Positions 3,108 through 25,052 of a stretch of 28,181 nt of DNA are shown here, piece after piece. Below the pieces are notes generated by a model that was given only the letters and a program-made list of their open reading frames with translations, did no database searches and had not been told where the DNA came from. The translations under genes and the position numbers were made by a program. This DNA is from a virus: the IMG/VR virus record IMGVR_UViG_3300042691_033664, positions 1 to 28,181 of that record; one strand, written 5' to 3'. Every line of letters begins with the position of its first letter. Within the stretch, counting starts at the first letter, position 1.

Positions 3108-3545
3108 ATGACAATGAATCCACCAACCGTACAACATCGCACTAGAGGACTATGTACCTTACTCAATGAGTTCAGCACCTACGTGTATCTACAAGACTCT
3201 AGTGGTAATAGGTTTGAATCAGGCTTAGGTGATATCATCCAAACCTTTACCTCAACCACACCCGTCATAGTCACACCTACACCCACTATTGCTGGTAGCC
3301 CTGCACAAGTACAGGTCAACATTAATGATGAGTCCTTAACTGCAACTGACTTAGCTGAGTTAGTTAGAGGAATAGGGCGTGCTATTGCTAAGGGTATTGT
3401 AAACAACCGCCCTAGTGGTGGGTATACAAGTATTGAACACTTAGTTGAAGTACTAACCTTAGCTAAAGTCAACTTCAACCAAGCTACTATTGATGCTATC
3501 AAAGCTGATAATTCTCTTGTGTTTGGGAATGTAGTTTCAGAGTAG
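3108..3545 (+). CDS. helix-hairpin-helix protein, second of a tandem pair
   Basis: 145 residues, the same length as its upstream paralogue and colinear with it. Residues about 70-120 read VNINDESLTATDLAELVRGI, then GRAIAKGIVNNRPSGGYTSI, a good ComEA-like match: a VNIN start, a GIG hairpin, an A-x-x-I-V-x-N-R-P helix and G-G-Y-T-S. The middle carries a short Pro/Thr linker (VIVTPTPTIAGSP) absent from the first copy. Gene duplication followed by divergence is the simplest explanation. A second ATG two codons in (3114) is an alternative start. The 3' end overlaps a convergent minus gene by 47 nt. Likely a virion or packaging-related DNA-binding protein; inferred. Confidence 0.65.
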   Translation: MTMNPPTVQHRTRGLCTLLNEFSTYVYLQDSSGNRFESGLGDIIQTFTSTTPVIVTPTPTIAGSPAQVQVNINDESLTATDLAELVRGIGRAIAKGIVNNRPSGGYTSIEHLVEVLTLAKVNFNQATIDAIKADNSLVFGNVVSE

Positions 3546-3696
3546 CCGCTAAATCAATTTGCTTATAACGTTCTGTGCAAACACCATCAATAACAGGCTC
3601 TACCCAGACAACTCTTTTAACTCTACCTACACGTCTATGGTCAAATATTCCATGTAGGTTTCTATAAAATATTGATTCATCTAAACGATAGGACAT
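3499..3696 (-). CDS. small basic hypothetical protein
   Basis: 65 residues from the ATG at 3696 (MSYRLDESIFYRNLHG); the frame is open 20 codons further up, but those codons cross a plus-strand mini-gene that starts at 3706, so the shorter form is preferred. Rich in Arg, Val and His, no recognised domain. It is divergent with the mini-gene (9-nt gap) and overlaps the end of the second helix-hairpin-helix gene by 47 nt. Confidence 0.45.
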   Translation of the reverse strand: MSYRLDESIFYRNLHGIFDHRRVGRVKRVVWVEPVIDGVCTERYKQIDLAATLKLHSQTQENYQL

Positions 3697-7796: not shown

Positions 7797-7958
7797 TTAG
7801 TTCACTGTATATTCTGTAATTGATTCAACTTCGTTGACATAACCGCAATGAGGGCAAAACACAAGGCTCCCCTCTTGTGGCTTAATATCAGCACACGTCC
7901 ACCATTTGCTGCAACTGTCGCAGTTGTAGTGGTAAAGAAATTCTAGCGATACTTCCAT
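7797..7958 (-). CDS. small zinc-ribbon protein
   Basis: 53 residues: MEVSLEFLYHYNCDSCSKWW, then TCADIKPQEGSLVFCPHCGY and VNEVESITEYTVN. Two Cys pairs (C-D-S-C at 13-16 and C-P-H-C at about 35-38) make a classic zinc ribbon of the kind found in small phage transcription or nucleic-acid-binding proteins. Its stop abuts the next ATG. It starts 40 nt from the divergent beta-helix gene at 7999, with AGTATA and a GCGTAGCG element between them. Confidence 0.65.
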   Translation of the reverse strand: MEVSLEFLYHYNCDSCSKWWTCADIKPQEGSLVFCPHCGYVNEVESITEYTVN

Positions 7959-7980
7959 GTTCACAGTATATTTAAACTAT

Positions 7981-18036: not shown

Positions 18037-18540
18037 ATGTCAGCACTACCCCTAGCTCAACAACTATCAACCCTACTAGCTAACACCTTTGTCTTTAGTC
18101 AACAACTACACGGCTTTCACTGGACGTATACTGGTGCTGGTTTCATCTACCTACACCCATTCCTAGGCGAGGACTATGAGAGTGTCAATGCTTCAGTAGA
18201 TACCTACGCAGAAGAAATACTAACCCTCAACTATGAACCACCAACTAGACTATGCGACTACCTAGCCCTATCCACATCTATCAAGGAACTACCCAAGGTA
18301 GATGATGGTGAGAAAATGTTACACATAGCCTACAGTGGACACAATATCTTAGGTGAACTAATCAAGGGCGTATTCCCTATAGCAGAAGAGTGTGGTGCTA
18401 ATGACATTGCCAACTACTTAGCTGAACGTCAGAACTACCACTATAAGAAAGCGTACTTCTATCGTGCTGAGCTAGGCATTAAGATTCCTTCAGTGTTTGA
18501 GGCATCTAAGCCTAGATTGCAGACTAGCCCCCAGTCCTAG
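18037..18540 (+). CDS. Dps-like ferritin
   Basis: 167 residues, the size of Dps. HGFHWTYTGAGFIYLH gives H28 and H40, and VDTYAEEIL gives D55 and E59. The spacing (12, 15, 4) equals that of the ferroxidase ligands of Listeria Dps (H31, H43, D58, E62), so the di-iron site between subunits looks complete. The C-terminal helix (DIANYLAERQNYHYKKAYFY) also fits. Dps dodecamers oxidise Fe(II) with peroxide and can bind DNA. A phage copy could protect the replicating genome from peroxide and iron in a photosynthetic cell, or be packaged; both inferred. The 3' end overlaps the next minus gene by 17 nt. Confidence 0.8.
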   Translation: MSALPLAQQLSTLLANTFVFSQQLHGFHWTYTGAGFIYLHPFLGEDYESVNASVDTYAEEILTLNYEPPTRLCDYLALSTSIKELPKVDDGEKMLHIAYSGHNILGELIKGVFPIAEECGANDIANYLAERQNYHYKKAYFYRAELGIKIPSVFEASKPRLQTSPQS

Positions 18541-21429: not shown

Positions 21430-21453
21430 GTTTCAATCCCTAATAGGGGTTAT
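21430..21453 (-). repeat. degenerate CRISPR-repeat-like half unit
   Basis: On the minus strand it ends CCCCTATTAGGGATTGAAAC. The hairpin loop and the GGGATTGAAAC handle match the complete unit at 21475 (CCCTTTTAGGGATTGAAAC), but the 5' half of the repeat is missing. The two units are 45 nt apart start to start, too close for a normal spacer. Confidence 0.65.
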
Positions 21454-21462
21454 CCACCTAGA

Positions 21463-21523
21463 CCTTATAGATGAGTTTCAATCCCTAAAAGGGTTTTAGA
21501 GGCTTTGAATCCTTATAGATGAG
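21463..21523. repeat. 13-bp direct repeats flanking a CRISPR-like unit
   Basis: CCTTATAGATGAG occurs at 21463-21475 and 21511-21523. The right copy contains the 3' acceptor strand of the tRNA-like gene; the left copy lies across the CRISPR-like unit. This is what an insertion or att-like duplication at a tRNA 3' end would leave. Confidence 0.7.
21475..21510 (-). repeat. solitary CRISPR-repeat-like unit B
   Basis: A 36-nt unit on the minus strand that begins ATTCAAAGCCTC, continues with the hairpin CCCTTTTAGGG and ends ATTGAAAC. From memory this is the form of cyanobacterial subtype I-D/III repeats, whose last eight bases become the crRNA 5' handle. It is identical to the unit at 24726; the identity extends over 41 nt. 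There is no array, spacer series or cas gene. It begins 5 nt after the 3' end of the tRNA-like gene on the same strand. Confidence 0.8.
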
Positions 21524-21642
21524 ACAGGATTTGAACCTGTAAGGAACACTCTGATAGCTGGCAATACAGCCATAGCAGAGGACGGGGTTAATTCCACATA
21601 TTAAGTTCCAGCCTATGCGTTTACCAATTCCGCCACTCATCT
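21516..21642 (-). tRNA. tRNA-Leu-like gene with an enlarged middle
   Basis: Minus strand: acceptor AGATGAG/CTCATCT pairs over 7 bp, followed by TG, a D arm GCGGAATTGGTAAACGC as in Leu tRNAs, and a perfect T arm ACAGG-TTCAAAT-CCTGT with the canonical TTCAAAT loop. No CCA is encoded. The region between the D and T arms is 76 nt, about 40 more than expected. It contains CTTAA (possible UAA anticodon) and a long hairpin (CTCTG...CAGAG enclosing ATGGCTG/CAGCTAT), but no normal anticodon stem. It may carry an insert, a giant variable arm, or be a decoy; the cyanobacterial Leu(UAA) group I intron would be much longer. Confidence 0.6.
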
Positions 21643-22047: not shown

Positions 22048-22070
22048 GTCAGGACAATGTGCCGCATCGT

Positions 22071-22090
22071 CCCCCAGTAGCGTAGCGTCC
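22071..22090. repeat. GCGTAGCG element 10
   Basis: CCCCC-AG-TAGCGTAGCG-TCC, followed by TTGAGGATAG, 22 nt beyond the stop of the minus gene 22113-22688. The same longer form (AGTAGCGTAGCGTCCTTGAG) is found at 24998, also just after a minus gene. Confidence 0.6.
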
Positions 22091-22112
22091 TTGAGGATAG
22101 AGTACTAGATGG

Positions 22113-22688
22113 TTAGAAAGATTCAGGCTTTTCTTTCCCATTAAGAATATCGATAGCACCAAGTACTTCAACTAGAGCTTTAGAGAGTTTCCCTTGAGCT
22201 TTGAGTTCTTTAATGCTAGGAGCTTTGCCACCAAGGATTTCAATCTGAACTTTGCGAAGTACATCAACACAACCTTCGATAAGGTCTGTCATGTCAAAGC
22301 GCTTGTCACGCTCTAAATTAGCAGGAGTAAATAGGCTTAGCTGACTAGCTACTTTACTAGCAGCAAACTGATAGTCTTCAAACTTAGTCAATTCGGCTGG
22401 TGGGTTTTCCATAGTTGCTAATGCGCTAGTAATATCAAAGTCAGGGGACTCTTGTACTTTAGATGCTTGGTCGGAATTAGTCATCATGTAACTAGAGCCT
22501 TCACCTTGCTTACCCTTAATAGTCTGTATCTCCCAGCCATCTTTACGAAGCACAGAAATAAAGTGTGATGCTCTATTGGTATGAGCAAATTTCTCAATCT
22601 CTTTCTCATGATGTTGACCACCAGTTGAGAGGAGAGACAATACCAATAGAGCAATAGGGGATGTAGGGGGCGCAATGAATTGTGTCAT
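22113..22688 (-). CDS. hypothetical protein with winged-helix-like N-terminus
   Basis: 191 residues. Residues 10-70 (SPIALLVLSLLSTGGQHHEK, then EIEKFAHTNRASHFISVLRK and DGWEIQTIKGKQGEGSSYMM) fit a winged helix: a helix, a helix-turn-helix with N-R-A-S-x-x-I-S-x-L-R, then a wing with G-x-x-Y. The rest is helical and acidic. Possible transcription regulator or replication accessory. It lies between the 12-bp hairpin at 22696 (upstream) and the element at 22071 (downstream), so it is probably its own transcription or processing unit. Confidence 0.5.
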   Translation of the reverse strand: MTQFIAPPTSPIALLVLSLLSTGGQHHEKEIEKFAHTNRASHFISVLRKDGWEIQTIKGKQGEGSSYMMTNSDQASKVQESPDFDITSALATMENPPAELTKFEDYQFAASKVASQLSLFTPANLERDKRFDMTDLIEGCVDVLRKVQIEILGGKAPSIKELKAQGKLSKALVEVLGAIDILNGKEKPESF

Positions 22689-24450: not shown

Positions 24451-24546
24451 ACTGTTACTGTTAAGTTAGTTGAACTGGAAACTGATGTTATACACCAGAC
24501 TCATTGGCGTTGCTATTGTATAACACCACAATGGCTTATAAGCATC

Positions 24547-24630
24547 CCTTTGCGTAGCACAAGCGCCATAGCACGGTCTGTCGCCGCGAGCTAGCTCAGA
24601 CTCTGGTGATAACTGCGAGGTACGCAAAGG
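24547..24630. ncRNA. 84-nt closed-stem structure, candidate small RNA
   Basis: CCTTTGCGTA (24547-24556) pairs perfectly with TACGCAAAGG (24621-24630). The 64-nt interior includes the palindrome GAGCTAGCTC and GTCTG/CAGAC arms. The size is tRNA-like, but no T arm or D arm can be found. Strand cannot be decided from the sequence. Confidence 0.4.
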
Positions 24631-24637
24631 ACGCACG

Positions 24638-24651
24638 GCTTAACGTTAAGC
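24638..24651. repeat. perfect 14-bp palindrome
   Basis: GCTTAACGTTAAGC. It lies 7 nt after the 84-nt structure and 2 nt before a GCGTAGCG hairpin. Candidate protein-binding site. Confidence 0.6.
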
Positions 24652-24653
24652 AT

Positions 24654-24675
24654 TCCCTAGCGTAGCGCTTTGGGA
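24654..24675. repeat. GCGTAGCG element 15
   Basis: TCCC-TAGCGTAGCG-CTTT-GGGA; the four outer bases pair. Confidence 0.55.
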
Positions 24676-24725
24676 GATGATGTTACGAGAAAGGGAGAAC
24701 TCTAATCTGTCCTCTGCTGAATTGA

Positions 24726-24761
24726 GTTTCAATCCCTAAAAGGGTTTTAGAGGCTTTGAAT
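24726..24761 (-). repeat. solitary CRISPR-repeat-like unit C
   Basis: Identical over 36 nt (41 nt with flanks, 24723-24763) to the unit at 21475, 3.25 kb away. On the minus strand it ends CCCTTTTAGGGATTGAAAC. No second repeat or spacer follows; a GTA-type element variant (CCCCTAACGTAG) abuts it on the plus-strand right side. Conservation of the whole unit, in contrast to its surroundings, argues for function in both places. Confidence 0.8.
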
Positions 24762-24845
24762 CCCTATCCCCTAACGTAGTAGCCATGACTCTTATCGAAC
24801 TACTGTTAAGTAGATGCGCTTGTGGGGCATTGACGGCACACTCGT

Positions 24846-24925
24846 TATGAGGACTATACATTAGAGGATAAGGATGTGGTGTGAGACGGAGAGCAAAGGA
24901 GTAGGCTGACTAAGTTGTCCTCATA
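24846..24925. ncRNA. 80-nt closed-stem structure, candidate small RNA
   Basis: TATGAGGAC (24846-24854) pairs perfectly with GTCCTCATA (24917-24925). The interior is purine-rich on the plus strand (GAGGATAAGGATGTGG and onward). Similar in size and design to the 84-nt unit at 24547 but unrelated in sequence. Confidence 0.35.
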
Positions 24926-24991
24926 GAGGCTTACCCAACCTTTCAACCCTTTGCGAAGAAACTAGGAGTTGAGTAAGGCAATCCTATCTTC

Positions 24992-25023
24992 TTCCCCTAG
25001 TAGCGTAGCGTCCTTGAGGGGAG
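24992..25023. repeat. GCGTAGCG element 17
   Basis: TTCCCCT (24992-24998) pairs with AGGGGAG (25017-25023) around AGTAGCGTAGCGTCCTTG. Located 30 nt beyond the stop of the minus gene at 25053, so a 3' hairpin for that unit is plausible. Confidence 0.65.
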
Positions 25024-25052
25024 AGCGCTAGAAGGTTAGCCTTTAGGCAGAG

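What the first reader, a model, noticed from the sequence alone, without database searches (positions are those of the whole stretch)
21430..21510. Solitary CRISPR-repeat mimics: candidate RNA anti-CRISPR
A 36-nt unit with the form of a cyanobacterial CRISPR repeat (hairpin CCCTTTTAGGG, end ATTGAAAC on the minus strand) stands alone at 21475 and is followed by a degenerate half copy at 21430. There are no spacers or cas genes. Phages are known to encode solitary repeat units that make small RNAs which capture Cas proteins (Racr RNAs). Here the unit is on the strand of the early genes and appears next to a tRNA-like gene. Seen: the repeats and their isolation. Known: the cyanobacterial repeat form and the Racr principle. 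Inferred: the function.
Basis: partly seen in the sequence, partly recalled or inferred. Interest (0 to 1): 0.92.

Follow-up and report, generated by a model that had tools for sequence, protein, structure and literature searches.

The report
Phage copies of host CRISPR repeats
A freshwater cyanophage carries two perfect single copies and one worn copy of the CRISPR repeat used by Pseudanabaena bacteria, with no CRISPR array or detected cas genes, which fits an RNA decoy that ties up the host's type I-D CRISPR machinery, although no RNA or effect has been shown.

Summary
A degenerate copy that keeps only the Cas6 module (hairpin plus ATTGAAAC) lies at 21430-21453. No array was found in the virus, and Cas6 and Cas1 profiles found no cas gene. 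Sequences downstream of the units match no tested protospacer. Two related phages also carry such units, each at a different intergenic place. Here the 21475 and degenerate units lie just behind a tRNA-like gene, where the relatives have tRNA-Tyr. One sister contig lacks exactly the 21475 unit. Best reading: an RNA anti-CRISPR (Racr) candidate against Pseudanabaena type I-D, bound and cut by host Cas6 and starving Cascade assembly. Expression, Cas6 binding and inhibition are untested. By the published criteria the 24726 copy is a solitary repeat unit; the reported 21475 copy is not, because of its degenerate neighbour. New member of a known kind.

The parts
21475..21511 (-). Full repeat unit 1 (37 nt). 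Predicted Cas6 cut between 21483 and 21482, leaving ATTGAAAC (21482-21475) on the downstream piece.
   Evidence: 36/37 identical to P. galeata and ABRG5-3 array repeats; same predicted fold as host repeats; CRISPR-DR5 31.1 bits.
24726..24762 (-). Full repeat unit 2, identical to unit 1 over 37 nt and truly solitary. Predicted Cas6 cut between 24734 and 24733.
   Evidence: no similar sequence in the 100-bp flanks; 65.9 bits to the host repeat.
21430..21453 (-). Degenerate unit: hairpin CCCTATTAGGG plus ATTGAAAC handle only. Predicted Cas6 cut between 21438 and 21437.
   Evidence: first 19 nt identical to a DR5-type repeat.
21454..21474 (-). 21-nt linker between unit 1 and the degenerate unit; too short for a normal spacer (host spacers about 35 nt) and without a protospacer match.
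21463..21475 (.). 13-bp direct repeat CCTTATAGATGAG, left copy.
   Evidence: sister contig L012 lacks 21463-21510 exactly.
21511..21523 (.). 13-bp direct repeat CCTTATAGATGAG, right copy; includes the tRNA 3' end.
21516..21642 (-). tRNA-like gene (Leu-like, with an insertion in the anticodon region) 4 nt upstream of unit 1 on the same strand.
   Evidence: Rfam RF00005 40.4 bits; not called by ARAGORN; in relatives a tRNA-Tyr follows here, where the window has the units.
24451..25052 (-). About 600-nt non-coding stretch between minus-strand genes that holds unit 2.
   Evidence: No ORF of 60 aa or more lies wholly inside it.

Best explanation
The units are RNA anti-CRISPR (Racr-type) decoys against the type I-D CRISPR-Cas system of the likely host, Pseudanabaena. 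Transcribed from the minus strand with the early genes and tRNA, each unit would fold like a host repeat and be bound and cut by host Cas6d 8 nt from its 3' end. The Cas6d-bound upstream fragment would then trap Cas6 (and perhaps Cas7/Csc2) in a dead-end complex without a spacer guide. Two perfect copies plus one Cas6-module copy would raise the dose. Shown: the sequences, their number, strand, matching host repeat and I-D operons, shared predicted fold, and separate placement in related phages. Inferred: transcription, Cas6 binding and cutting, sequestration, and benefit to the phage.
For: 36/37 identity to array repeats and the same 37-nt length as the host repeat; type I-D operons with cas6, csc2, csc1 and cas10d/csc3 beside the cognate arrays; 37 nt equals the 29+8 nt handles of type I-D Cas6 processing (PMC10212523); same predicted fold as host repeats; no array, Cas1 or Cas6 found; intergenic, and all three window units on the early-gene strand; decayed copies in the window and in L045 keep the hairpin-handle module; units present in 3 of 3 phages of the group at different places; RacrIF1 precedent, with Cas6 processing and dose dependence (PMC10651486).
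Against: No RNA, binding or inhibition evidence. No recognisable promoter: scans at shuffle level. No spacer against this phage in the host arrays or genomes searched, so CRISPR pressure by this host is not shown. One L045 unit runs antisense to late genes. Unit 1 has a degenerate neighbour, which the published solitary-repeat definition excludes.
Confidence: 0.64

Rival explanations
1. The units are passengers or relics: CRISPR repeats picked up by recombination with host arrays or plasmids and copied within the phage, with no function.
For: Places differ between related phages; unit 1 looks like a recent copy between 13-bp direct repeats and is absent in L012; degenerate copies exist; solitary repeats also occur as debris on host plasmids, for example beside a Tn3 transposase in P. 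galeata pPg_02.
Against: Decay spares the Cas6 module in both the window and L045; two copies remain perfect over 37 nt; five of the six units in the three phages lie on the early-gene strand; every related phage found has at least one.
Confidence: 0.22
2. The units are a minimal CRISPR mini-array: they use host Cas proteins to make a guide RNA from the downstream sequence against competing phages, as viral mini-arrays do.
For: The 21475 and 21430 units are neighbours and would yield a 45-nt RNA with a true 5' handle; viral mini-arrays and the CRISPR array of cyanophage N-1 are precedents (PMC11656645, PMC4916379). L045 has a second hairpin about 60 nt after one unit.
Against: Start-to-start spacing of 45 nt against about 72 nt in host arrays; the 24726 unit has no second repeat in its flanks; downstream sequences of the 24726 unit and of one L045 unit have no good match among phage records, and none of the segments tested has one in the loci held.
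Confidence: 0.1
3. The repeats are attachment or recombination sites that let the phage integrate into host CRISPR arrays, or sites for Cas-dependent regulation.
For: CRISPR-repeat-like sequences used for viral integration and Cas-dependent repression are mentioned as alternatives in PMC10651486. Unit 1 sits at a tRNA 3' end, a classic attachment place.
Against: No tyrosine integrase or resolvase family member in sister records up to 44.8 kb or in relatives. Several copies at unrelated places, and different places in related phages, do not suit an attachment site. Records may be incomplete.
Confidence: 0.04

Closest known systems
Solitary repeat units / Racr RNA anti-CRISPRs, e.g. RacrIF1 (Camara-Wilpert et al. 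2023, PMC10651486)
   Same: Single copies of a host-type repeat, intergenic, in a phage without cas genes; Cas6 hairpin and cut site preserved.
   Different: Targets type I-D, while the paper's tests named in its text are I-C, I-E, I-F and V-A. Two perfect copies plus a degenerate one, beside a tRNA-like gene. No acr neighbour was recognised. Function untested.
CRISPR array of cyanophage N-1 (Chenard et al. 2016, PMC4916379)
   Same: DR5-type cyanobacterial repeats in a cas-less cyanophage.
   Different: N-1 has five repeats, four spacers and a leader, and is transcribed during infection. Here there is no array, spacer or leader.
Viral CRISPR mini-arrays (reviewed in PMC11656645)
   Same: Host-matching repeats in viral genomes.
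   Different: Mini-arrays carry spacers, most of which match related viruses; none is seen here.
AcrID1, the type I-D anti-CRISPR protein of SIRV3 (reviewed in PMC10212523)
   Same: Would inhibit the same CRISPR subtype.
   Different: A protein of an archaeal virus that binds Cas10d. Here a non-coding RNA would target Cas6d/Cas7d in a cyanobacterium.

Membership tests
Solitary repeat unit (SRUFinder definition, PMC10651486) | At least 90% identity over at least 90% of a known CRISPR repeat, bit score at least 41.1 | tested here: met
   97.3% over 37/37 and 65.9 bits for both full units, by blastn-short against array repeats taken from L004 and L005; the SRUFinder program itself was not run.
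Solitary repeat unit (SRUFinder definition, PMC10651486) | Intergenic, and no other full or partial repeat in the 100-bp flanks: unit 24726 | tested here: met
   Non-coding stretch; no similar sequence in the flanks.
Solitary repeat unit (SRUFinder definition, PMC10651486) | No partial repeat in the 100-bp flanks: unit 21475 (the one reported) | tested here: not met
   18/19 match in the flank, which is the degenerate unit 21430.
Racr RNA anti-CRISPR | Repeat matches the CRISPR subtype of the phage's host | tested here: inconclusive
   Repeat is Pseudanabaena type I-D; that Pseudanabaena is the host is inferred only.
Racr RNA anti-CRISPR | Transcribed and processed by Cas6 | not testable with these tools
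   No RNA data; hairpin and cut site conserved.
Racr RNA anti-CRISPR | Inhibits CRISPR interference | not testable with these tools
   Needs an interference assay.
CRISPR mini-array | Two or more repeats at normal spacing with a spacer that matches a related virus | tested here: not met
   45-nt spacing against about 72 nt in arrays; no protospacer match found.
Attachment site in CRISPR arrays | Integrase in the phage | tested here: not met
   No PF00589 or PF00239 member in sister records and relatives, which may be incomplete.

The most novel reading that the evidence does not exclude
The unit at 21475 is a tRNA-coupled decoy. It occupies the place of a lost tRNA-Tyr gene, is cut free by tRNA 3' processing 4 nt before the repeat, and together with the degenerate unit yields a short Cas6 trap plus a 45-nt stunted crRNA. 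The phage amplified the decoy by copying it within its genome to raise the dose. [quoted passage not shown]
Probability: 0.2. Interest if true: 0.75.

Novelty: new member of a known kind. Interest (0 to 1): 0.58.

Why it matters
The type I-D review read here (PMC10212523, 2023) names a single anti-CRISPR, an archaeal viral protein (AcrID1). A cyanophage RNA decoy with a near-identical cognate repeat, host genus and operon would extend RNA anti-CRISPRs to this hybrid type I/III subtype and gives a concrete, cheap test in cyanobacteria. The separate units in three related phages, and a strain pair differing by one unit, offer natural material for asking whether phages tune decoy dose.

Tried and rejected
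(1) Chance: rejected by shuffles. (2) Guide-producing array: spacing and downstream sequences do not fit. (3) Attachment site: no integrase or resolvase. (4) Host confirmation by spacers: 958 spacers from held arrays gave at most 15-nt exact matches to this phage in the part of the output that was printed; searching 12 host genomes or records with the window gave the repeats themselves, a small related gene and one weak 43-nt match (the listing was cut). (5) Promoter and terminator scans were at or below the shuffle level. (6) Acr, aca or cas genes nearby: none recognised among the proteins scanned with PHROGs, Pfam and NCBIfam. (7) A conserved place across relatives: rejected, because L045 and L046 carry units elsewhere. 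(8) One script with a fuzzy regular expression timed out. (9) The precise 48-bp absence in L012 rests on one metagenome contig, and other indels occur in sister contigs, so it is treated as suggestive only.

Full report
WHAT IS THERE. The window is a 28,181-nt viral record. At 21475-21511 lies GTTTCAATCCCTAAAAGGGTTTTAGAGGCTTTGAATC. Read on the minus strand it is GATTCAAAGCCTCTAAAACCCTTTTAGGGATTGAAAC, the form of a cyanobacterial CRISPR repeat ending in the ATTGAAAC handle. A second copy, identical over all 37 nt, lies at 24726-24762. A third, degenerate copy at 21430-21453 keeps only the hairpin CCCTATTAGGG and the handle. All three are on the same strand. The 19-nt core was never found in 100 dinucleotide shuffles even with three mismatches, and the best 37-mer in 200 base shuffles still had 12 mismatches.

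WHOSE REPEAT IT IS. A scan of one genome per species for a degenerate form of the repeat returned 20 stretches, all from Pseudanabaena, from Phormidium tenue FACHB-1050 or from uncultured cyanobacterial MAGs, nearly all of them arrays. The phage unit differs at one position of 37 from the array repeats of Pseudanabaena galeata CCNP1313 and, at another position, from those of Pseudanabaena sp. ABRG5-3. The exact phage combination was not seen among the host repeats held, so it combines natural variants or belongs to an unsampled host. Both arrays lie on plasmids beside type I-D genes: csc3/cas10d, cas7d/csc2, cas5d/csc1, cas3', cas6, cas4, cas2, with cas1d annotated in ABRG5-3. The stretches read hold 74 and 83 repeats, mostly 70-80 nt apart.

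STRUCTURE. The predicted fold of the phage unit equals that of the host repeats, and the paired variable positions of host and phage keep the pairing. The unit of related phage L046 has a more stable predicted fold (-10.7 against about -7.5 kcal/mol). In type I-D, Cas6d cuts after the stem-loop to leave an 8-nt 5' and a 29-nt 3' handle (PMC10212523; 8-nt tags in Synechocystis, PMC3575380). 37 = 29 + 8 places the cuts at 21483|21482 and 24734|24733, with the equivalent cut in the degenerate copy at 21438|21437. Cuts at both neighbouring units would release a 45-nt RNA, against about 72 nt for a normal crRNA. This step is inferred. In the longer 87-nt transcript the minimum-energy prediction pairs the two neighbouring units with each other instead, so the unit hairpins are not certain there.

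SURROUNDINGS. Unit 1 begins 4 nt after the 3' end of a tRNA-like gene (21516-21642 minus, Rfam 40.4 bits). In the related phages L045 and L046 the same stretch, between a conserved upstream block and a small reading frame beginning MLE, holds a tRNA followed by tRNA-Tyr. In the window the unit pair stands in the tRNA-Tyr slot. The 24726 unit lies in a 600-nt non-coding stretch between minus-strand genes; about 15% of the window is non-coding by a hand-picked gene set. No array was found, and no Cas1 or Cas6 in the sister or related records; Cas6 was also absent from the window record itself. Proteins recognised by profile include a major head protein, a primase-like protein, MazG, a Dps/ferritin-like protein and an exonuclease. 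The only isolate with related proteins found is Synechococcus phage S-EIV1 (35% and 28% identity), which has no hairpin-handle module of this form.

VARIATION. Several IMG/VR contigs are the same virus at about 99.9% identity and keep the units they cover. One, L012, lacks exactly 21463-21510: unit 1 plus one copy of the 13-bp direct repeat CCTTATAGATGAG that flanks it. One reading is that unit 1 was copied in from the 24726 copy, with short homologies (TGAG, CC) at both ends. Loss by recombination between the 13-bp repeats, or an assembly error, is not excluded. L046 carries one full unit between two co-directional genes. L045 carries two units reduced to hairpin plus handle, one upstream of its tRNAs and one against the late genes. 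No place is shared between the three phages. The group thus appears to gain and lose units repeatedly, and decayed copies keep the Cas6 module.

MECHANISM. The best-supported account is a Racr-type decoy. RacrIF1 is bound and cut by Cas6f, its upstream product (not the 5' handle) inhibits by holding Cas6 and Cas7, and the effect is dose-dependent (PMC10651486). The anatomy here suits that: intact Cas6 module, no spacer, several copies. Whether upstream RNA long enough for a Cas7 filament is present is open. If the tRNA is processed, only 33 nt would remain before the cut at unit 1, which would favour trapping Cas6 over a long Cas7 filament. This is a testable difference. Everything from transcription onward is inferred.

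RIVALS. Passenger copies (22%) are the main rival. The shifting places suit it; the keeping of the Cas6 module in decayed copies and the same-strand placement of five of six units speak against it. A guide source (10%) is disfavoured by spacing and by absent protospacers. Attachment or regulatory sites (4%) are disfavoured by the absence of an integrase or resolvase.

WHAT IS NOT ESTABLISHED. The host is inferred from repeat identity and a small zinc-ribbon reading frame resembling one in P. biceps O153. No convincing spacer against this phage was found among 958 spacers or in 12 host genomes or records. No promoter is evident. By the published definition the 24726 unit qualifies as a solitary repeat unit, while unit 1 does not because of its degenerate neighbour.

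NOVELTY. Over two thousand solitary repeat units are already catalogued in viruses (PMC10651486), so this is a new member of a known kind. What is less usual is the type I-D target, the duplicated unit, the tRNA slot and the separate units in related phages. I could not check whether this very contig is in the published supplementary tables.

Noticed in passing
21516-21642 (-); L046 about 3364-3550: Leu-like tRNA genes with unusual insertions (the window one is 127 nt, with an insert in the anticodon region); ARAGORN misses both. An intron or a decayed tRNA is possible.
   Followed up: partly
7800-7960 (-): Reading frame of about 53 aa with two CxxC pairs (zinc-ribbon-like), not in the 60-aa ORF list, resembling a small protein in Pseudanabaena biceps O153 (77% DNA identity over 84 nt); a weak sign of host.
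   Followed up: partly
22067-22116 and 24990-25039, also near 7980, 26290 and 27400: Dispersed non-coding element rich in GTAGCGTAGCGTCC or CCCCTA-GCGTAGCG, shared between intergenic regions and with related phages.
   Followed up: no
L045 14661-14760: A hairpin-handle unit followed about 62 nt later by a second hairpin AATCCCTTTTAGGGAT without the full handle: a possible degenerate one-spacer mini-array, running antisense to late genes.
   Followed up: partly
L017, L019, L020, L021, L053: Other viral contigs carry one to three DR5-type repeat units 67-71 nt apart, i.e. likely mini-arrays in other cyanophages.
   Followed up: no
L006 3002-3038: A single Pseudanabaena CRISPR repeat on P. galeata plasmid pPg_02 beside a Tn3-family transposase whose end also sits in the first repeat of the pPg_01 array: transposon insertion in or by an array.
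   Followed up: partly
L052 1338-1463: Microcystis phage Ma-LMM01 has annotated 56-bp repeat units that contain the same CCCTATTAGGGATTGAAA core.
   Followed up: no
18037-18540 (+): Phage gene for a Dps/ferritin-like protein (PF00210, 49.9 bits), on the plus strand within the early region.
   Followed up: no
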